Source: an uncultured Elusimicrobiales bacterium | GTDB lineage: Bacteria; Elusimicrobiota; Elusimicrobia; Elusimicrobiales; Elusimicrobiaceae | DNA length: 34,270 bases | Assembly: GCA_944324115.1 (NCBI GenBank) | Contig: CALUVB010000006.1 | Coordinates: forward strand, 1-34,270 | Direction: 5' to 3' | In this document: in pieces, positions 5,513 through 14,982 of the stretch | Layout of the letters: every line of letters begins with the position of its first letter | Numbering within the stretch: the stretch's first letter is position 1 | Notes under the pieces: model-generated | Told to the model about the DNA's origin: nothing | What the model saw: only the letters and a program-made list of their open reading frames with translations | Databases searched by the model: none | Position numbers and translations under genes: made by a program

Positions 5513-6136
5513 TTAAAGTTCTTCGTGCATTACCTTCAGTACGGATTTTTCTTTTGCCACGGGCAGGCATTCCTGCACGCGGTAGCATTTCCCGTTAACA
5601 CTTTGGGAGATGGCTTCTATATCGGCGTCTGTGAGCACTTCTTTGTCGTAGGTGGTGCGGAATTCGTAGCCGATGCCCGCATTGCGTATCAAATCCATAG
5701 ACTGGCGCAACACAGCCGGGTTAAATTCCACTCCTGTAATGGAAGAATACTTTTCCAGCGGGGCTTTCAAATCCATCGCAATAAAATCCACCAATTTTTT
5801 CTCCAGCAATTCTTTTATCATATCTGGCCGGGTACCATTGGTGTCCAGTTTGACGGCATAGCCCATGGATTTTATTTTGGCTAAAAATTGTGGCAAGTCA
5901 TCAAATAAAGTGGGCTCTCCTCCGGAGACTACAATTCCCTCCAGCGTGCCCTGGCGGCGTTTTAAAAAGGCGTCTATTTCCTCTTCTGCAACGGGCTGAG
6001 TGAAAAGATGGGGATATACCAATTCCGGGTTATGACAGTAGCGGCAGCGGAAATTGCACCCCTGGGTAAATATCACCGCAGCCGGCCGGCCCGGAAAATC
6101 TATGAGCGTAAATTTTAGCAATCCTCCTATTTTCAT
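5513..6136 (-). CDS. nrdG: Anaerobic ribonucleotide reductase activase, radical SAM enzyme
   Basis: NrdG reductively cleaves S-adenosylmethionine to place the glycyl radical on class III ribonucleotide reductase. The protein is 207 residues. The radical-SAM CxxxCxxC motif is at Cys27, Cys31 and Cys34 (GCNFRCRYCHNPE), binding the 4Fe-4S cluster. GGEPT (SAM-binding) is in the expected place at about residue 92, and DLKAP and EFRTTY follow. It is the last gene of nrdD - glycyl-radical subunit - nrdG, 28 nt after the small subunit gene. Its substrate here is unusual, because the glycine to be activated sits on a separate small protein rather than on NrdD itself. The start ATG has AGGA about 9 nt upstream on the minus strand. 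Confidence 0.93.
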   Translation of the reverse strand: MKIGGLLKFTLIDFPGRPAAVIFTQGCNFRCRYCHNPELVYPHLFTQPVAEEEIDAFLKRRQGTLEGIVVSGGEPTLFDDLPQFLAKIKSMGYAVKLDTNGTRPDMIKELLEKKLVDFIAMDLKAPLEKYSSITGVEFNPAVLRQSMDLIRNAGIGYEFRTTYDKEVLTDADIEAISQSVNGKCYRVQECLPVAKEKSVLKVMHEEL

Positions 6137-6507: not shown

Positions 6508-8568
6508 TTATTTGCTGTACAACTGTTCTTCCAATAGGCGCACTTGGCGTTCCAGCTCCTGCATGCGTTCGGCTTTGCATTTGGGGCATTCAAAATGTTC
6601 CCCTTCAATATAGCCGCATTTGGGGCAGACGCTGAATGTGGGCGTAATGGAGAAGTAGGGAAGCGTGTATTTTTCGCACACGGTTCTGATGAATTTCTTC
6701 ATCGCTTCCAAGTTTTTAATGCGTTCCCCGGTGAATATATGCTGCACGGTGCCTCCGGTGTATTTGGACTGGATATTGCTCTGTAAGTCCAGCATTTCAA
6801 ATACGTCGTCGGTATAGTTGACCGGCAGCTGCGATGAATTGGTATAGAAAGGCTGGTGCCCTTGTTTATACAGTTCCTCATCTGCGCAGATGATTTCGGG
6901 GTAGCGCTCCTTGTCCAGCTTGGCCAAGCGGTAAGAGGTGCCTTCGGCCGGGGTGGCTTCCAAGTTGTAGTTGTTGCCGGTTTCTTCCTGAAATTTGACC
7001 AAGGTCTCACGCATAAAGGTCAACACTTTTTCAGCAAAGGCGCGGCCTTTCTCTGTGCCGATGTCTTCCCCTATCAAGTTGACGGAGGCTTCGTTCAGGC
7101 CCACTAAGCCGATGGTGGAGAAGTGGTTTTTCCAATATTCGTTAAAGCGCTGCTTGACGGTGCGCAAATAGAAGCTCATGTACGGATAAAGATTTGCGCT
7201 GGTAAAGCGTTCAATAACTTTACGCTTGATTTCTAAGCTTTCTTTGGCCGTTTCCATGCGGTCAAGCAGATTTTTGAAAAATTCATCTTCATCTTTGGAC
7301 AAATAGCCCAAGCGCGGCAAATTGATAGTCACCACACCGATAGAGCCCGTCAGCGGGGCAGAACCAAACAGACCGCCGCCGCGTTTGCGCAGCTCGCGGT
7401 TGTCAATACGCAAGCGGCAGCACATGGAACGGGCGTCTTCGGGGTTCATGTCGGAGTTAATAAAGTTGGCAAAGTACGGAATGCCGTATTTGGCCGTCAT
7501 TTCCCACAACGGCGTTAATTTAGGATTATCCCAGTCGAAATCTTTGGTAATATTGTACGTCGGAATCGGGAACGTGAACACGCGGCCTTTGGCGTCTCCT
7601 GCGAGCATGACTTCGCAGAAAGCGCGGTTGAGCAAGTCCATTTCGTTTTGGAACTCTTTATAGGTCTTGTCCATCAGTTTCCCGCCGATGATAACCGGCT
7701 GGTCCTTATAATAGGAAGGCACATTAAGGTCCAGCGTTAAGTTGGTAAAAGGCGTTTGGAAGCCTACGCGGGTGGGCACGTTCACGTTAAACAGAAATTC
7801 CTGCAGGGCCTGTTTTACTTCATCGTAAGAAAGCTTGTCGTAATAGATAAACGGCGCCAACAGCGTATCAAAATTGCTGAACGCCTGCGCTCCGGCGCTT
7901 TCCCCCTGCAAGGTGTAGAAAAAGTTGACCACTTGGCCCAGAGCCGTGCGGAAGTGTTTGGCGGGTTTGCTTTCGGCTTTGCCTACTACACCGGTGAAGC
8001 CGCTGAGCAGCAAATCTTGCAAATCCCAACCTACGCAGTAAGCGCCCAGCAAGCCCAAATCGTGCAGGTGGAAGTCCCCTTCCGTGTGCATGCGTTTTAC
8101 TTTTTCAGGATAAATTTTATTGAGCCAGTAAATTTTGCTGATTTCAGAGGAAATATAATTGTTAAGTCCCTGCAGGGAATAGCCCATATTGCTGTTTTCG
8201 TTGACTTGCCAGTCAATTTGTTTAAGGTATTGATCTACCAAATCCACGTTGAATTTGGAAGAAATTTCACGGATACGGGCGTGCTGGTCGCGGTAGAGGA
8301 TATAAGCTTTTGCCGTTTTGTGATAATTAGACGTCAGCAATACATCTTCTACAATATCCTGTACGTTTTCTACGTTGGGGGTGGTGTCGGAATAAAGCTG
8401 TTGAATGATATTAATGGCCCGGATAGTCAATTTTTTTGCGGTTTCTGCGTCAAACTCTCCGGTTACCGCGGCGGCTTTTTCAATAGCCTTGGTAATCTTT
8501 TTAGAATCAAAATGTTGAATAGTTCCGTCTCTTTTGACGATATTTGTAATTACTTCTGCGTTTTCCAT
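6508..8568 (-). CDS. nrdD: Class III ribonucleotide reductase large subunit lacking the glycyl radical motif
   Basis: NrdD makes deoxyribonucleotides from ribonucleoside triphosphates without oxygen. The N-terminus is an ATP-cone allosteric domain (residues about 1-95, IVKRDGTIQHFDSKKITKAIEKA). The catalytic barrel follows, with LHDLGLLGAYCVGWDL and SMCCRLRIDNREL-x5-GGLFG, then the TGSIGVVTINLPRLGY stretch, holding the usual active-site cysteines. The zinc-ribbon cysteines are Cys648, 651, 661 and 664. In ordinary NrdD the zinc site is followed at once by the RVxGY radical motif. Here the chain instead continues into a 22-residue charged helix (MQELERQVRLLEEQL) and stops. The radical motif is on the next gene. 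The ribosome site AGGA is 8 nt from the ATG. Confidence 0.95.
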   Translation of the reverse strand: MENAEVITNIVKRDGTIQHFDSKKITKAIEKAAAVTGEFDAETAKKLTIRAINIIQQLYSDTTPNVENVQDIVEDVLLTSNYHKTAKAYILYRDQHARIREISSKFNVDLVDQYLKQIDWQVNENSNMGYSLQGLNNYISSEISKIYWLNKIYPEKVKRMHTEGDFHLHDLGLLGAYCVGWDLQDLLLSGFTGVVGKAESKPAKHFRTALGQVVNFFYTLQGESAGAQAFSNFDTLLAPFIYYDKLSYDEVKQALQEFLFNVNVPTRVGFQTPFTNLTLDLNVPSYYKDQPVIIGGKLMDKTYKEFQNEMDLLNRAFCEVMLAGDAKGRVFTFPIPTYNITKDFDWDNPKLTPLWEMTAKYGIPYFANFINSDMNPEDARSMCCRLRIDNRELRKRGGGLFGSAPLTGSIGVVTINLPRLGYLSKDEDEFFKNLLDRMETAKESLEIKRKVIERFTSANLYPYMSFYLRTVKQRFNEYWKNHFSTIGLVGLNEASVNLIGEDIGTEKGRAFAEKVLTFMRETLVKFQEETGNNYNLEATPAEGTSYRLAKLDKERYPEIICADEELYKQGHQPFYTNSSQLPVNYTDDVFEMLDLQSNIQSKYTGGTVQHIFTGERIKNLEAMKKFIRTVCEKYTLPYFSITPTFSVCPKCGYIEGEHFECPKCKAERMQELERQVRLLEEQLYSK

Positions 8569-9509: not shown

Positions 9510-9974
9510 CTAGTTGAGCAAAATTACGGCATAATTTAGGCTCCAAGCAAATCCCAACCATATAATATAAGGCACTAACAGCCAAAAAGCTTGCCGGCAA
9601 ACGGGCCAAAGGCGTTTGAGCAGCCAGGCCGTCACGAAAACTAAAGCGGTTAAAACCAATAAAGCCCAGCCCGGCTCTTGCCTTCCAAAAAATATGGGTG
9701 TCCACAAAGCATTCAGTGCCAACTGGCTGATAAACAATAACAAAGCCGGGCGTATCTCTGGGCGCAGACCTCGCCTGGTTAGATAAAAGCCGGCTACCCC
9801 CATTAAAATATATAACACGCTCCATACCGCCCCAAACAGCCAATCCGGCGGCATAAAAGAAGGTTGCACTAATCCGTGGAACCAAGGTATTCCTTGGCTG
9901 ACGGAAGTTGCTCCTGCCCAAGTAGGCAGCTGGCAGAAGACAATCCAAAATATAAGTCTGGGCAAATGATGCAT
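9510..9974 (-). CDS. tspO: TspO/MBR family tryptophan-rich membrane protein
   Basis: This is a five-helix membrane protein of the TspO/peripheral benzodiazepine receptor family, which binds porphyrins and related ligands; its bacterial role is regulatory or stress-related and not well settled. At 154 residues it has the family size. Recognisable stretches are WF..L..PSFMPPDWLFGAVWSVLYILMGVAGF (helix 1-2 loop and helix 2), SQLALNALWTPIFF (helix 3) and PYIIWLGFAWSLNYAVILLN (helix 5, including the family's W..FA..LN motif). The frame extends to 9998, but the ATG at 9974 follows GGGGGAA by 3 nt and is preferred. It is a single gene on the minus strand, divergent from accB. Confidence 0.9.
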   Translation of the reverse strand: MHHLPRLIFWIVFCQLPTWAGATSVSQGIPWFHGLVQPSFMPPDWLFGAVWSVLYILMGVAGFYLTRRGLRPEIRPALLLFISQLALNALWTPIFFGRQEPGWALLVLTALVFVTAWLLKRLWPVCRQAFWLLVPYIIWLGFAWSLNYAVILLN

Positions 9975-10213
9975 ATTTCCCCCAGTATGCTTTATCATAT
10001 TGGAAGTATGGTTTTCATCTTCCTGTACTTGCTCCAGTATAGCTTATTCTGGGTTTTTTGCGGTAGCATAAAACCGGATTAGAGTGCTGTGATTTGAGGA
10101 GAGGAGAAAAAGCTTTTAGCTGTTTTTGAAAAATTCTATCTTCGGTCTTGCTTTAGCTGGCCTGTTAAAGACAGAAAAGCCTATGTGTACAGCTTTCCCG
10201 GAGCGGAGAAAAA
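9975..10213. other. Intergenic region between tspO and the acc genes
   Basis: About 240 nt. It must hold the tspO promoter on the minus strand; I see no convincing -35/-10 pair. A 63-codon minus-strand frame at 10116-10307 lacks a ribosome site and overlaps accB, so it is not called. Confidence 0.4.
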
Positions 10214-10260: not shown

Positions 10261-10635
10261 ATGGATACTAAATTGATTGCAGAAATTACCCAGTGGATGA
10301 AAACCACGGATTTGGCAGAATTTTGTTACGAAAAAAATCATAATTGTATTGAAATCAAAACCCGCGAAGCTTTGCCCGAGCCTGCTCAGTTCTCTTGTCA
10401 TTTAACAGCCGTTGCCGCGCCTGCTTTGGGCTTTTATCATGCCGCCCCGAAAGGCAAGAGTTTGCCTCTGAAAGAAGGCCAAAAAGTCAAGGAAGGAGAC
10501 AGCTTGGGTTTGGTGGAAACCGTATCTGCCAAGCACTCCGTTACGGCGCCGGTGGCCGGTACGCTGCGTATTATTGCCGCCGAAGAAGGCAAAGCTGTAG
10601 AATATGGCCAGCCGTTGTTTTTTATTGAACCGTAG
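10261..10635 (+). CDS. accB: AccB-like biotinyl/lipoyl-domain protein with the carrier lysine replaced
   Basis: The 124 residues follow the biotin carboxyl carrier protein plan: an N-terminal helix and strand (IAEITQWMKTTDLAEFCYEKNHNCIEIKTRE), a short linker, then a biotinyl domain from about residue 50 (GFYHAAPKGKSLPL, KVKEGDSLGLVE, APVAGTL, VEYGQPLFFIEP). Directly followed by accC (9-nt gap), it should carry biotin for acetyl-CoA carboxylase. The modification hairpin is abnormal. Where BCCPs have EAMKM, this protein has ETVSAKH (residues 86-92). Ser89 aligns with the biotinylated lysine, and the nearest lysine is Lys91, two residues on. The codons are unambiguous. It may be a degenerate or repurposed carrier, or be modified at a shifted lysine. 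Another accB could exist elsewhere. Confidence 0.85.
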   Translation: MDTKLIAEITQWMKTTDLAEFCYEKNHNCIEIKTREALPEPAQFSCHLTAVAAPALGFYHAAPKGKSLPLKEGQKVKEGDSLGLVETVSAKHSVTAPVAGTLRIIAAEEGKAVEYGQPLFFIEP

Positions 10636-10644
10636 AGGCCTTCC

Positions 10645-12036
10645 ATGACTGCAAAAATTAAAGTAACTCCCTTTAAAAAAGTGCTTATAGCCAACCGCGG
10701 CGAAATTGCTTTGCGCGTGATTCGCACGCTCAGAGAAATGAATATCAAATCCATTGCCGTTTATTCCGAAGCGGACCGCAATAGCCTGCATGTGCGTATG
10801 GCTGATGAAGCGGTGTGTATCGGTGCGGCTCCGTCGACGTTGAGCTATCTGAATATTGACGCGGTGGTAACCGCCGCCAAGATGACCGGGGCAGACGCCG
10901 TACACCCGGGCTATGGGTTTTTGTCTGAAAATGCGGATTTTGCCGAAGCCGTGACCAAAGCCGGCATTACGTTTATTGGCCCTACGGCCCAAGCAATCAG
11001 TATGTTGGGCGTGAAAAGCACCGCGCGTGAAATTGCCGTCAAAGGCGGCGTGCCGATTACGCCGGGTTCTGATGGCGTGGTGGGAAAGAACTTTAGAGAA
11101 GTGGCCCGTAAAATCGGCTTTCCTATTATGATTAAGGCTTCTTTGGGCGGCGGCGGAAAAGGAATGCGTGCTTGTTTGGAAGAAAAAGATTTGGAACGCA
11201 TGATGAAAACAGCCCAGGCCGAAGCCAAGGCCAACTTTGGCGATGATCGCGTCTATTTTGAAAAACTCGTTTTAAATCCGCGTCATATTGAAGTGCAGGT
11301 GGCTGCCGATAATTATGGCAACGCCATTGCCTTTGCCGAGCGCGACTGCAGCATGCAGCGCCGCCACCAGAAGCTGGTGGAAGAATCGCCGTCTCCGTTT
11401 GTAGATGCGGTTACCCGCCGTAAACTGCAAGAAGCCGCCGTTAAATTGGTCAAAGCTGCCAAATACCGCGGCGTGGGCACGGTGGAATTTTTGATGGCGC
11501 AGAACAAAGAATTTTATTTTATGGAAGTAAATACGCGTCTTCAGGTGGAGCACCCGGTAACGGAAGCCGTGTGCGGCTATGATTTGGTTAAAATGCAAAT
11601 CCGCATTGCTCAAGGCGAGCCCTTGTGCATCGGGCAGAAAGAAGCGGCGGTCATTCGCTGTCATGCCATTGAACACCGTATTAATGCCGAAGACAGTGAT
11701 CGTAATTTTACCCCGTGTCCGGGTACTATTGAAGAATGGATTCCCGCCGGGGGCTTGGGGGTGCGTGTGGACAGCCATATGTATACGGGATACACCATTC
11801 CCAGCTATTATGACAGTTTGATAGCTAAGCTGATTTTAACCGCTCCAGACCGAGAAAAGCTGCTGCAACGCAGCCGCCGCGCGCTGGGGGAATTTAAAGT
11901 GGGGGGGGTTAAGACGACGATTCCTTTCCACCAGAAGATAGTAAATAATTCGGATTTCGTTGCTGGCAATATGGATACGGGACTGATTGAACGTATGCTG
12001 GAAGCGCAACAAAAGCAAGATGAAGGCAAAAAGTAA
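10645..12036 (+). CDS. accC: Biotin carboxylase subunit of acetyl-CoA carboxylase
   Basis: AccC carboxylates biotin on the carrier protein using ATP and bicarbonate, the first step of malonyl-CoA formation for fatty acid synthesis. The protein is 463 residues, slightly longer than typical (about 450) because of a short N-terminal extension and a charged tail. The N-terminal domain opens with [22 protein letters not shown]. The ATP-grasp domain has [12 protein letters not shown] (glycine-rich loop), [12 protein letters not shown], and the metal-binding [16 protein letters not shown]. The C-terminal domain includes GHAIE-like [12 protein letters not shown]. All catalytic motifs look intact, in contrast to the neighbouring carrier. 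The next gene starts inside its last codons. Confidence 0.96.
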
Positions 12037-12484
12037 GATTTTCAGCCGGCCCGCATTAGCCAAATGGCTGGATAAACAACGCAAAGCGGGACATAAAATA
12101 GTATTTACCAACGGCTGTTTTGATATTCTGCACGCCGGACATGTAAGCGTGCTGGAGTTTTCGCGTGCCCAAGGAGACGTGCTGGTGGTGGGGGTGAACA
12201 GCGATGCATCGGTGCGGCGTTTGAAAGGTCCCACCCGCCCCGTCAATAAACAAGCCGACCGGGCGTTGGTGCTGGCGGCGCTGGAGTCGGTAAACGCGGT
12301 GTGCGTATTTGGAGAAGATACGCCGTACAATTTAATTAAATTGGTCCGCCCCGATGTGCTGGTAAAAGGCGGCGATTATAAGCCTTCGGAAATTGTGGGC
12401 AGAGAATTTGCAAAAAAAGTAGCGCGTTTTGCTCTTTTAAAAGGGCGTTCCACTACCAATATTATCAAGAAAGTACAGAAGTAG
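12020..12484 (+). CDS. hldE: D-glycero-beta-D-manno-heptose 1-phosphate adenylyltransferase (RfaE/HldE C-domain type)
   Basis: This nucleotidyltransferase forms ADP-heptose, the precursor of the LPS inner core, and so points to an outer membrane. The 154 residues correspond only to the C-terminal domain of the bifunctional E. coli HldE; the kinase half must be separate. Motifs are [13 protein letters not shown] (HxGH nucleotide-binding signature), [25 protein letters not shown] and the closing [11 protein letters not shown]. The frame is open back to 11987. The ATG at 12020 gives a normal start and a 17-nt overlap with accC; no strong Shine-Dalgarno is seen, suggesting coupling to accC translation. 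Confidence 0.92.
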
Positions 12485-12503: not shown

Positions 12504-13694
12504 ATGTCTGATATTTTTGAAAAGTGCAAAAATTATAAAGATGCCAAACTGGCCATGAAGCTGGGTATTTACGGCTATTTCCAGCCGATAGAATCGGCCC
12601 AGGGGCCGGAAGTGGTGTTAGGCGGTAAAAAGTATATTATGGCCGGGTCTAACAATTATTTGGGATTGGCCGATGACCCGGAGATGAAAAAAGCCGCCGC
12701 AGACGCCGCCTTGAAATACGGCACCGGCTGTGCGGGTTCCCGCTTTTTGAATGGGAATACCGTTTTTCACGACCAATTGGAACAGCGCATTGCGCGTTTT
12801 AAACGCAAAGAAGCCGGCCTTATCTTTTCCACCGGTTATCAGATGAATTTGGGCGTGGTGTCCTGCTTAATTAGAAAAGGGGATTATGCCATTGTGGATA
12901 AATTGGACCATGCCAGTATTTTAGACGGCGTCAAACTTTCTGACGGAGAGATGGTGCGTTTTAAACACAATGACCCGGAAGATTTGGAACGTGTACTTTC
13001 TAAATTGCCTCCCGAAGCCGGGAAATTGATTATTGTAGACGGCGTCTTTAGCATGGAGGGTGACATTTGCCCACTGCCGGACATTGTCAAAGCCGCCAAG
13101 AAATACGGCGCGCGTATTATAGTAGATGATGCGCATGCGACGGGTATCATCGGCAAAACAGGCCGCGGCACCTGTGAATATTTCGGTTTGGAAAACGGGG
13201 AAGTGGATTTGGTGGTAGGCACCTGCTCCAAGACCTTTGCCACGGTGGGTGGCTTTGTGGTGGGAGACGCGGATATTATTCATTATATCCGCCACAATGC
13301 ACGCAGCCAGATTTTCTCCGCGGCGTTGCCGCCGGCCTCTGTGGCTTCTATCAATAAAGCGCTGGAGCTGATAGAAAATGATACTTCCCGCCGCGATAAT
13401 TTGTTCCGTATGACGGATAATTTGAAAAAAGGTTTGCGTGAGCTGGGCTTTGATTTGGGACACAGCACCACGCCGGTTATCCCGGTGCATGTGGGCAGCA
13501 ATGAAAACTGCTTTAAGATGTGGCGTGCGCTGCATGAGCTGGGTATTTTCTCCAATCCGGTGGTCAGCCCTGCCGTGCCGCCGGGCCGCGCCTTAATGCG
13601 TTTGACGTTGATGGCTACGCACACTGACGAGCATGTACAAAAGATTATTGATGCGTTTGCCCAGGCGGGCCGGGCAGTAGGCGTTATTAAATAG
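12504..13694 (+). CDS. Serine palmitoyltransferase-like PLP enzyme (alpha-oxoamine synthase family)
   Basis: This PLP-dependent enzyme condenses an amino acid with an acyl thioester. The family includes KBL, AONS (BioF), HemA and SPT. The 396 residues match the SPT branch best by eye: GSNNYLGLADDPE, KYGTGCAGSRFLNGN, H.QLE..IA.F and the lysine loop GTCSKTFATVGGF with Lys243 as the Schiff-base residue. KBL and AONS usually have GTLGKALG at that point. His136 (KLDHAS) and Asp209/His211 (VDDAHATG) are the expected cofactor contacts. AAAGGAAAAG precedes the ATG. A terminator follows, then the candidate ceramide synthase gene. The probable product is 3-ketosphinganine; 2-amino-3-ketobutyrate or 8-amino-7-oxononanoate formation cannot be excluded. 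Confidence 0.88.
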   Translation: MSDIFEKCKNYKDAKLAMKLGIYGYFQPIESAQGPEVVLGGKKYIMAGSNNYLGLADDPEMKKAAADAALKYGTGCAGSRFLNGNTVFHDQLEQRIARFKRKEAGLIFSTGYQMNLGVVSCLIRKGDYAIVDKLDHASILDGVKLSDGEMVRFKHNDPEDLERVLSKLPPEAGKLIIVDGVFSMEGDICPLPDIVKAAKKYGARIIVDDAHATGIIGKTGRGTCEYFGLENGEVDLVVGTCSKTFATVGGFVVGDADIIHYIRHNARSQIFSAALPPASVASINKALELIENDTSRRDNLFRMTDNLKKGLRELGFDLGHSTTPVIPVHVGSNENCFKMWRALHELGIFSNPVVSPAVPPGRALMRLTLMATHTDEHVQKIIDAFAQAGRAVGVIK

Positions 13695-13832: not shown

Positions 13833-13852
13833 CCACGGGTAAATGCCCGTGG
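13833..13852 (+). promoter_or_regulatory. Leader hairpin just upstream of the acyltransferase gene
   Basis: CCACGGG (13833-13839) pairs with CCCGTGG (13846-13852) around TAAATG and is followed by TAGTTTCTTTT. It ends 20 nt before the ATG at 13873 and immediately precedes the ribosome site. It could act as a terminator/attenuator or merely as a leader stem. Confidence 0.45.
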
Positions 13853-13872
13853 TAGTTTCTTTTGGAGGGAGT

Positions 13873-14982
13873 ATGGCGCAGATAGAGATCCAAGATGCAG
13901 AAAAACAGCTTAAATCATTTGTTCAATTTCCTTTTGATTTATATAAAAATGACCCCTATTGGGTGGGGGAGCTGAAAGCGGATACGCTGAAATTACTGCG
14001 GCCTAAAAATACCTTTTGGAGCCATGCGCGGCGTAAATTATTGCTGGCATATAAAGACGGCCAGGTGGCGGGCCGGCTGTGCGTGTTGGTAAATGACACA
14101 TACAACAACTATCATAAAGAGAATATCGGTTTTTTCGGATTTTTTGACTGTATCAATGATAAAGCCGTTTCTTGCGCCCTGTTTGAAGAAGGGGAAAAGT
14201 GGTTGCGTACACAAGGAGTGCAAGCCGTGCGCGGGCCAGCCAATCCTTCTTCCAACCATGTTTATGGGTTGCTGACGGACAGCTTTGAGCAAATGCCTGC
14301 TATTATGATGCCATATAATTATCCGTATTATATGGAGTTACTAGAAGCTGCTGGATTTGCAAAAGCAAAAGATTTGCTGGCGTTTAAACGTACGCGTGAT
14401 GACAAATTTTCTGCATTGTTTGAGAAAATAGTGGCTCGTGCGGCGCGCGTTAAAGGTTTGACGCTGCGGCGGTTGAATTTAAAAAAACTAAAGCAAGAGG
14501 CTTCTATTATCCGTAAAATTTATAATGAGGCCTGGGCGGAGAACTGGGGGCATACGCCGCTGTCTGAGGAAGAAATGCAAGACATGGTGCGGGAGCTGAA
14601 GTGGGTAGTGCGCTCCGAAGGCACCTGCGTGGCGGAAGTAGACGGTGTACCGGCCGGATTTTATATTGCCATTCCCAATATGAATCATGTGTTAAAAATT
14701 TTGCGCGGTAGCTTGTTCAATCCTTGGCGTACGTTGCGTGCTCTGTTGGCTTGGCCTAAGATACGTGACGCACGTTTAATTATGTTGGGGGTGGAGCCGG
14801 GGTTCCGCAAGCGCGGTATAGACTTGGTGCTGATTAAGCATATTGTAGAATACGGCGTAGCCATATGGGACGAAGCGGAACTGTCGTGGATTTTAGAAGA
14901 TAATGAGGGCATTATCCGCGCCATGACGGAGGCGGGGTGTTATCAAACCAAGCGCTATCGTCTGTATCAGAAGCCACTTTAG
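13873..14982 (+). CDS. GNAT-fold N-acyltransferase, YghO family, candidate bacterial ceramide synthase
   Basis: The protein is 369 residues. Typical stretches of this family are visible: KSFVQFPFDLYKNDPYWV near the N-terminus, GRLCVLVNDTYN, IGFFGFFDCIND, WLRTQGVQAVRGPANPSSN, YNYPYYMELLEAAGF and a GNAT-like cofactor region LIMLGVEPGFRKRGIDLVLI at about residues 295-315. As I recall, the bacterial ceramide synthase described in Caulobacter belongs to this family. Its position next to an SPT-like gene supports N-acylation of a sphingoid base (inference). The frame is open from 13843, but the ATG at 13873 has GGAGGGAG 3 nt upstream and is preferred. A strong terminator follows. Confidence 0.8.
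   Translation: MAQIEIQDAEKQLKSFVQFPFDLYKNDPYWVGELKADTLKLLRPKNTFWSHARRKLLLAYKDGQVAGRLCVLVNDTYNNYHKENIGFFGFFDCINDKAVSCALFEEGEKWLRTQGVQAVRGPANPSSNHVYGLLTDSFEQMPAIMMPYNYPYYMELLEAAGFAKAKDLLAFKRTRDDKFSALFEKIVARAARVKGLTLRRLNLKKLKQEASIIRKIYNEAWAENWGHTPLSEEEMQDMVRELKWVVRSEGTCVAEVDGVPAGFYIAIPNMNHVLKILRGSLFNPWRTLRALLAWPKIRDARLIMLGVEPGFRKRGIDLVLIKHIVEYGVAIWDEAELSWILEDNEGIIRAMTEAGCYQTKRYRLYQKPL

What the first reader, a model, noticed from the sequence alone, without database searches (positions are those of the whole stretch)
10519..10539. AccB-like carrier lacks the biotinyl (and lipoyl) lysine
The codons read ETVSAKH where BCCPs have EAMKM and lipoyl domains have ETDKA. Ser89 occupies the modified position, with Lys91 two residues later. 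The rest of the domain and the adjacent accC are well preserved, so this is not simple decay of the locus. The protein may be a non-carrying scaffold or regulator of AccC, be modified at a shifted lysine, or be paired with a second carrier.
Basis: partly seen in the sequence, partly recalled or inferred. Interest (0 to 1): 0.65.

Follow-up and report, generated by a model that had tools for sequence, protein, structure and literature searches.

The report
Lysine-less AccB paralogue beside accC
A small protein encoded next to the fatty-acid enzyme biotin carboxylase looks like the biotin-carrying subunit but has lost the attachment lysine, and it stays under strong selection across a group of gut and environmental bacteria while a second, normal copy keeps the lysine, so it is probably a non-carrying helper subunit like one described so far only in plants.

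Summary
The 124-aa AccB-like ORF at 10261-10635, 9 bp before the genome's only biotin carboxylase, reads ETVSAKH where BCCPs read EAMKM. Ser89 aligns without a gap to biotinyl-Lys122 of E. coli AccB. It is not a sequencing error or local decay: 52 of 52 same-genus genomes (uncultured Elusimicrobiales) lack Lys there, and dN/dS is about 0.1. The genome holds separate normal BCCPs (EAMKV) on other contigs.

Across the phylum two sister AccB clades exist (support 100). AccB1 keeps EAMK in 25 of 25 sequences. AccB2, linked to accC, has lost the EAMK motif in all sampled members of five families (f1, f2, f7, f8, f10), and its lysine has changed at least 13 times. Outside these families AccB2 is usually still EAMK. 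In matched genomes the hairpin is 98% identical in AccB1 and 22% in AccB2, while the N-terminal domains are equally conserved.

Best reading: AccB2 is a former second carrier turned non-carrying subunit or regulator of AccC, with AccB1 carrying biotin. It is a bacterial, apparently independent counterpart of plant BADC. Complex formation and modification state are untested, and some relatives keep a lysine in a degenerate motif.

The parts
10261..10635 (+). AccB2: AccB-like protein, 124 aa, without the biotinyl lysine
   Evidence: PF00364 47.5 bits over its cut-off; best NCBIfam match TIGR00531 BCCP 50.5 bits but below the 115.2 cut-off; conserved throughout the order
10261..10362 (+). N-terminal AccB-type domain (residues 1-34)
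   Evidence: aligns with the N-terminus of E. coli AccB in 4hr7, weak score; dN/dS 0.088, lowest of the regions measured
10396..10632 (+). biotinyl-type domain (residues 46-124), thumb one residue shorter than in E. coli AccB
   Evidence: AlphaFold2 model pLDDT 82.8; best PDB match 1bdo, Z 13.9, rmsd 2.3, 78 residues
10516..10536 (+). hairpin ETVSAKH in place of EAMKM
   Evidence: direct sequence; turn between two strands in the model; variable in AccB2, invariant in AccB1
10525..10527 (+). Ser89 codon at the position of the biotinylated lysine (Lys122 of E. coli AccB)
   Evidence: S/A/T/G/F in 52 of 52 genus members
10645..12036 (+). accC, the only biotin carboxylase of the genome
   Evidence: NF006367 660.9 bits and TIGR00514 648.7 bits, both over cut-off; only PF02785 match in the genome; catalytic motifs aligned
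11987..12484 (+). cytidylyltransferase-like gene (TNGCFDILH type); listed start overlaps accC, true start probably later
   Evidence: PF01467 62.2 bits; same position after accC in relatives
12504..13694 (+). PLP-dependent acyltransferase, serine-palmitoyltransferase/Kbl/BioF-like
   Evidence: NF047600 505 bits, below its 640 cut-off; downstream of accC in several relatives
13843..14982 (+). GNAT-domain protein, last gene of the run
   Evidence: PF00583 31.1 bits
15015..15033 (+). terminator-like hairpin after the gene run
   Evidence: 7-pair stem followed by TTTTTC; a consensus match only

Best explanation
AccB2 is a paralogue of the biotin carboxyl carrier protein that no longer carries biotin. 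It most likely stays bound in the AccC module as a non-catalytic subunit that helps assemble or tune the complex, while the separately encoded AccB1 (EAMKV) shuttles the carboxyl group from AccC to the single carboxyltransferase. Shown here: the missing lysine, conservation under purifying selection, the AccB fold, long-standing linkage to accC, a second carrier with the intact motif, and relaxation strongest at the modification hairpin. Inferred: that it binds AccC and/or AccB1, that it is unmodified, and that its role is assembly or regulation.
For: No Lys at position 89 in 52 of 52 genus members, with dN/dS 0.105 overall, 0.088 in the N-terminal part and 0.143 in the hairpin. AccB1 and AccB2 are two clades with SH-aLRT 100; K89 changes at least 13 times in AccB2 and never in AccB1. 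In genome-matched sets from the class, hairpin identity is 0.98 in AccB1 and 0.22 in AccB2, while N-terminal identity is 0.34 and 0.39. The genome has one biotin carboxylase, next door, one carboxyltransferase, a biotin-ligase-type gene and AccB1 with EAMKV. In class relatives the order MTAP-like, cytidine-deaminase-like, AccB2, an extra gene, accC recurs, which supports orthology. AccB fold, best matches 1bdo and 4hr7. Precedent: plant BADC proteins lack the motif and act as glue in a BC-BCCP-BADC complex (PMC11926652).
Against: No interaction, expression or modification data. In the sister family f2, 19 of 24 AccB2 keep a Lys at position 89 in an EVGKD-like motif, and most of genus g12 keep one too, so some orthologues might still be modified. 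Residues 90-91 always include a Lys in the genus. In the wider class the biotinyl-type domain is slightly better conserved (0.43) than the N-terminal part (0.39), so the N-terminal domain is not clearly the functional core.
Confidence: 0.6

Rival explanations
1. AccB2 is an inhibitor or decoy: it occupies the carrier site of AccC without biotin and lowers carboxylase activity in proportion to its level, coupling malonyl-CoA supply to operon expression.
For: Same evidence as the scaffold reading; an inhibitory role has been proposed for plant BADC (quoted in PMC11926652); equimolar operon expression with AccC would give stoichiometric control.
Against: The plant study argues that its structural data do not fit inhibition; a constitutive 1:1 inhibitor co-encoded with the sole biotin carboxylase seems costly. 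Not separable from a scaffold by sequence.
Confidence: 0.2
2. AccB2 is still a carrier, modified at a shifted lysine (K90 or K91) by biotin ligase or a lipoyl ligase.
For: At least one Lys at residues 90-91 in 52 of 52 genus members; ligase-family genes are present.
Against: Neither K90 (34/52) nor K91 (43/52) is conserved by itself; the AM/M neighbours are lost; from general knowledge of biotinyl and lipoyl domains, moving the lysine by one residue abolishes modification (not re-tested here, no paper held); the other clade keeps EAMK without exception.
Confidence: 0.08
3. AccB2 is a transcriptional or translational autoregulator of its operon through its N-terminal domain, as reported for E. 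coli AccB, and the barrel is retained only for folding.
For: N-terminal region has the lowest dN/dS (0.088); first gene of the accC run.
Against: The barrel is also under strong purifying selection (0.115) and its C-terminal strand motif GQPLFFIE is among the best conserved parts; the E. coli precedent is from memory, not tested.
Confidence: 0.09
4. Decaying pseudogene or assembly error.
For: The key residue of the family is missing.
Against: dN/dS about 0.1 and conservation across the order in independently assembled genomes.
Confidence: 0.02

Closest known systems
Biotin carboxyl carrier protein AccB (E. coli BCCP, TIGR00531; structures 1bdo, 4hr7)
   Same: colinear N-terminal domain (weak score), thumb-bearing flattened barrel, gene next to accC
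   Different: no lysine at the modified hairpin position, no EAMKM; below the TIGR00531 cut-off; shorter linker (124 aa in all)
Plant BADC proteins (noncatalytic BCCP paralogues of plastid heteromeric ACCase)
   Same: BCCP paralogue lacking the biotinylation motif, coexisting with a true BCCP and a separate BC subunit
   Different: bacterial, co-encoded with accC, belongs to a phylum-wide clade some of whose members keep EAMK, so apparently arose independently; partner binding is unproven; the genome's carboxyltransferase is of MmdA/PCC-beta type instead of AccA/AccD
Lipoyl domains and GcvH
   Same: related barrel fold
   Different: AccB-type thumb and N-terminal domain; top structure matches are biotinyl domains; no lysine at the lipoyl position; the genome has a separate GcvH with ESVKS
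Epsilon subunit AccE of actinobacterial acyl-CoA carboxylases
   Same: idea of a small noncatalytic subunit assembling a biotin carboxylase complex
   Different: described as containing a helix structure in PMC3199775; not a biotinyl fold as far as known

Membership tests
Biotin carboxyl carrier protein (AccB/BCCP) | biotinyl/lipoyl barrel with thumb | tested here: met
   PF00364 over cut-off; 1bdo Z 13.9, rmsd 2.3 over 78 residues; thumb one residue shorter
Biotin carboxyl carrier protein (AccB/BCCP) | biotinylated lysine in an EAMKM-like hairpin | tested here: not met
   Ser89 in place of Lys; 52 of 52 genus members lack it
Biotin carboxyl carrier protein (AccB/BCCP) | TIGR00531 score at or above the curated cut-off | tested here: not met
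   50.5 against 115.2 bits; note that AccB1 of the same genome, with EAMKV, also falls slightly short at 107-109
Biotin carboxyl carrier protein (AccB/BCCP) | N-terminal AccB domain | tested here: inconclusive
   colinear alignment with 4hr7 residues 21-55 but only 5.1 bits
Biotin carboxyl carrier protein (AccB/BCCP) | gene linkage to accC | tested here: met
   9 bp upstream of accC; accC downstream on the same strand in nearly all fetched loci of the phylum
Plant BADC | BCCP paralogue lacking the biotinylation motif while a true BCCP coexists | tested here: met
Plant BADC | binds BC and BCCP and promotes assembly | not testable with these tools
   needs protein biochemistry; plant precedent in PMC11926652
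Plant BADC | common descent with plant BADC to the exclusion of other BCCPs | not tested
   no plant sequences could be fetched; AccB2 groups with EAMK-bearing Elusimicrobiota proteins, which suggests independent origin
Lipoyl domain / GcvH | lysine at the lipoyl position of the hairpin | tested here: not met
   Ser89

The most novel reading that the evidence does not exclude
Much of a bacterial class replaced an ancestral two-carrier acetyl-CoA carboxylase by a carrier plus an obligate non-carrying carrier-fold subunit. This would be a bacterial, independently evolved counterpart of plant BADC, with lineages at intermediate stages (EAMK, AMR or AMQ, EVGKD, ETVSAKH) as a natural series for testing how a carrier becomes a scaffold.
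Probability: 0.5. Interest if true: 0.72.

Novelty: new variant of a known kind. Interest (0 to 1): 0.58.

Why it matters
Noncatalytic BCCP-like subunits have been called unique to the plant enzyme (PMC11926652), and whether they are glue or inhibitor is disputed. A bacterial version co-encoded with the sole biotin carboxylase, with EAMK-bearing orthologues in related lineages, would give a simpler system to settle that and show that the solution evolved more than once. It also warns that annotating the gene beside accC as accB can mislead pathway reconstruction: in these genomes the likely carrier is encoded elsewhere.

Tried and rejected
Full-length AlphaFold2 model from a shallow permitted alignment: pLDDT 51, not used; the domain-only model was good. 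Idea that the extra gene between accB2 and accC in relatives is the carboxyltransferase: rejected; it is a zinc-ribbon/TPR-like, probably membrane-anchored protein, with no match in this genome (that empty answer had no positive control). AccA/AccD: none found; the one PF01039 protein is MmdA/PCC-beta-like and also gives the only PF03255 match. Literature searches for a bacterial lysine-less BCCP found none; the library holds only open-licence papers, so this is weak evidence. The E. minutum genome paper and papers on moved target lysines were not held. tRNA and Rfam scans of the window's right end were empty.

Full report
What is there. The window is contig C6 of a 1.53-Mb, 96%-complete genome in 25 contigs; its nearest named relatives are uncultured Elusimicrobiales MAGs. 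The ORF 10261-10635 encodes 124 aa and is followed after 9 bases by accC (10645-12036). Residues 86-92 read ETVSAKH at 10516-10536; the coordinates in the finding are one codon late. Position 89 is Ser where BCCPs have the biotinylated Lys. No gap is needed across the hairpin in sequence alignments. In the structural alignment to E. coli AccB 1bdo the register puts Ser89 on Lys122.

Fold. Pfam Biotin_lipoyl scores over its cut-off. NCBIfam's best match is the acetyl-CoA carboxylase BCCP model at 50.5 bits, far below its 115.2-bit cut-off. A domain-only AlphaFold2 model (pLDDT 82.8) has residue 89 in the turn between two strands and matches 1bdo, the AccB of the E. coli BC-BCCP complex 4hr7, and Arabidopsis BCCP1 best. 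The alignment fed to the model contained ordinary biotinyl domains, so the fold result is expected for a homologue. The thumb is kept with one residue less.

Not an error, not decay. The protein is found in 36 of 37 genomes of the genus and all 24 sampled genomes of the sister family. All 52 genus sequences examined lack Lys at position 89 (S 44, A 3, T 2, G 2, F 1). Pooled dN/dS is 0.105, with 0.088 for residues 1-34, 0.115 for the barrel and 0.143 for the hairpin.

The likely carrier. The genome has five biotin/lipoyl domains: an OadA-type protein with EAMKM, two BCCPs with IEAMKV on contigs C12 and C17, GcvH, and the window protein. It has one biotin carboxylase, the window's accC, one carboxyltransferase (MmdA/PCC-beta type, 534 aa, contig C8) and a biotin-ligase-like protein. 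AccC therefore has a potential EAMKV partner, encoded elsewhere.

History. With both paralogues sampled across the phylum (102 sequences), a tree built without the hairpin columns separates AccB1 from the accC-linked AccB2 with SH-aLRT 100. AccB1 reads EAMK in 25 of 25. AccB2 reads EAMK or ETMK in the sampled f9, f18, f21, f23 and most f12 members, AMQ in one f3 genome, AMR in two f12 genera, and no longer has AM in families f1, f2, f7, f8 and f10. The Lys state at position 89 needs at least 13 changes within AccB2 and none in AccB1; many forks are poorly resolved because the protein is short, and the one-residue insert in f7 makes position 89 ambiguous there. In f2, 19 of 24 keep a Lys in an EVGKD-like motif, with R, N or G in the other five; most of genus g12 also keep one. 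In genome-matched comparisons within the class, hairpin identity is 0.98 for AccB1 and 0.22 for AccB2, while N-terminal identity is 0.34 and 0.39 and barrel identity 0.63 and 0.43. Constraint was thus lost most strongly at the modification hairpin. In relatives of the class the order MTAP-like, cytidine-deaminase-like, AccB2, zinc-ribbon protein, accC recurs (gene names there are read from the sequences), which supports orthology despite divergence; the genus has accB2 directly before accC.

Mechanism. The most economical reading is that an ancient duplication gave two carriers; AccB1 kept the biotin, and AccB2 kept its place in the AccC module but not the biotin. The closest working precedent is plant BADC, non-biotinylated BCCP paralogues that bind BCCP and BC and act as glue, or by another view as inhibitors; that paper calls them unique to the plant enzyme (PMC11926652). 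Whether AccB2 assembles, stabilises or inhibits is not decided by sequence. Steps shown: missing lysine, selection, fold, linkage, second carrier. Steps inferred: no modification, binding to AccC or AccB1, role. Modification at K90 or K91 is unlikely but not excluded.

Metabolic setting. In two close relatives the single-chain carboxyltransferase lies on the same strand, about 28 kb downstream of accB2, directly after a PfaA-like synthase and a phosphopantetheinyl transferase. In the window the PfaA-like gene starts at 29170 and runs off the contig, and contig C8 carries a polyketide-dehydratase-like segment, the PPTase and the carboxyltransferase, so C6 and C8 are probably neighbours. E. minutum has a Type R secondary lipid synthase cluster with PfaA and PPTase (PMC3098273). 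The carboxylase served by AccB2 may thus feed malonyl-CoA to this synthase; that link is inference.

Verdict. It is a new variant of a known kind: an AccB paralogue that should not be filed as a BCCP, working perhaps like BADC but not shown to be one.

Noticed in passing
window 29170-34269 (+), contig end: PfaA-like multidomain synthase (ketoacyl synthase, acyltransferase) running off the contig; in relatives it is followed by repeated copies of a roughly 85-aa segment, which may explain the contig break, then a PPTase and a carboxyltransferase.
   Followed up: partly
L002 and L003 (G000 contigs C12 and C17): Two AccB1 loci: the C12 locus is 99.6% identical in DNA to a relative (G092) whose AccB2 is only about 91% identical to the window's in protein, while C17 differs by about 18% in DNA. 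One contig may be a contaminant of the MAG; either way AccB1 is present.
   Followed up: partly
L061, L066, L081, L127, L133 and others: A 450-680 aa protein with an N-terminal zinc-ribbon-like motif and TPR-like C-terminus is encoded between accB2 and accC in family f2 and several class relatives; function unknown, no match in this genome.
   Followed up: partly
L144, L149, L154: Apparent separate losses of the lysine in otherwise canonical motifs: EAMQ (f3 g17), EAMR (f12 g70) and VAMR (f12 g55), each with an EAMK AccB1 elsewhere in the genome.
   Followed up: yes
window 12504-13694: Serine-palmitoyltransferase-like/Kbl-like PLP enzyme kept downstream of accC in several relatives; possible sphingolipid-type or alpha-oxoamine chemistry, below the curated cut-off.
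   Followed up: no
window 6508-8568 (-) and 5513-6136 (-): Anaerobic ribonucleotide reductase (NRDD, ATP-cone) and a radical SAM protein that may be its activase.
   Followed up: no
window 9510-9998 (-): TspO/MBR family protein upstream of accB2, where other class members have MTAP-like and cytidine-deaminase-like genes.
   Followed up: no
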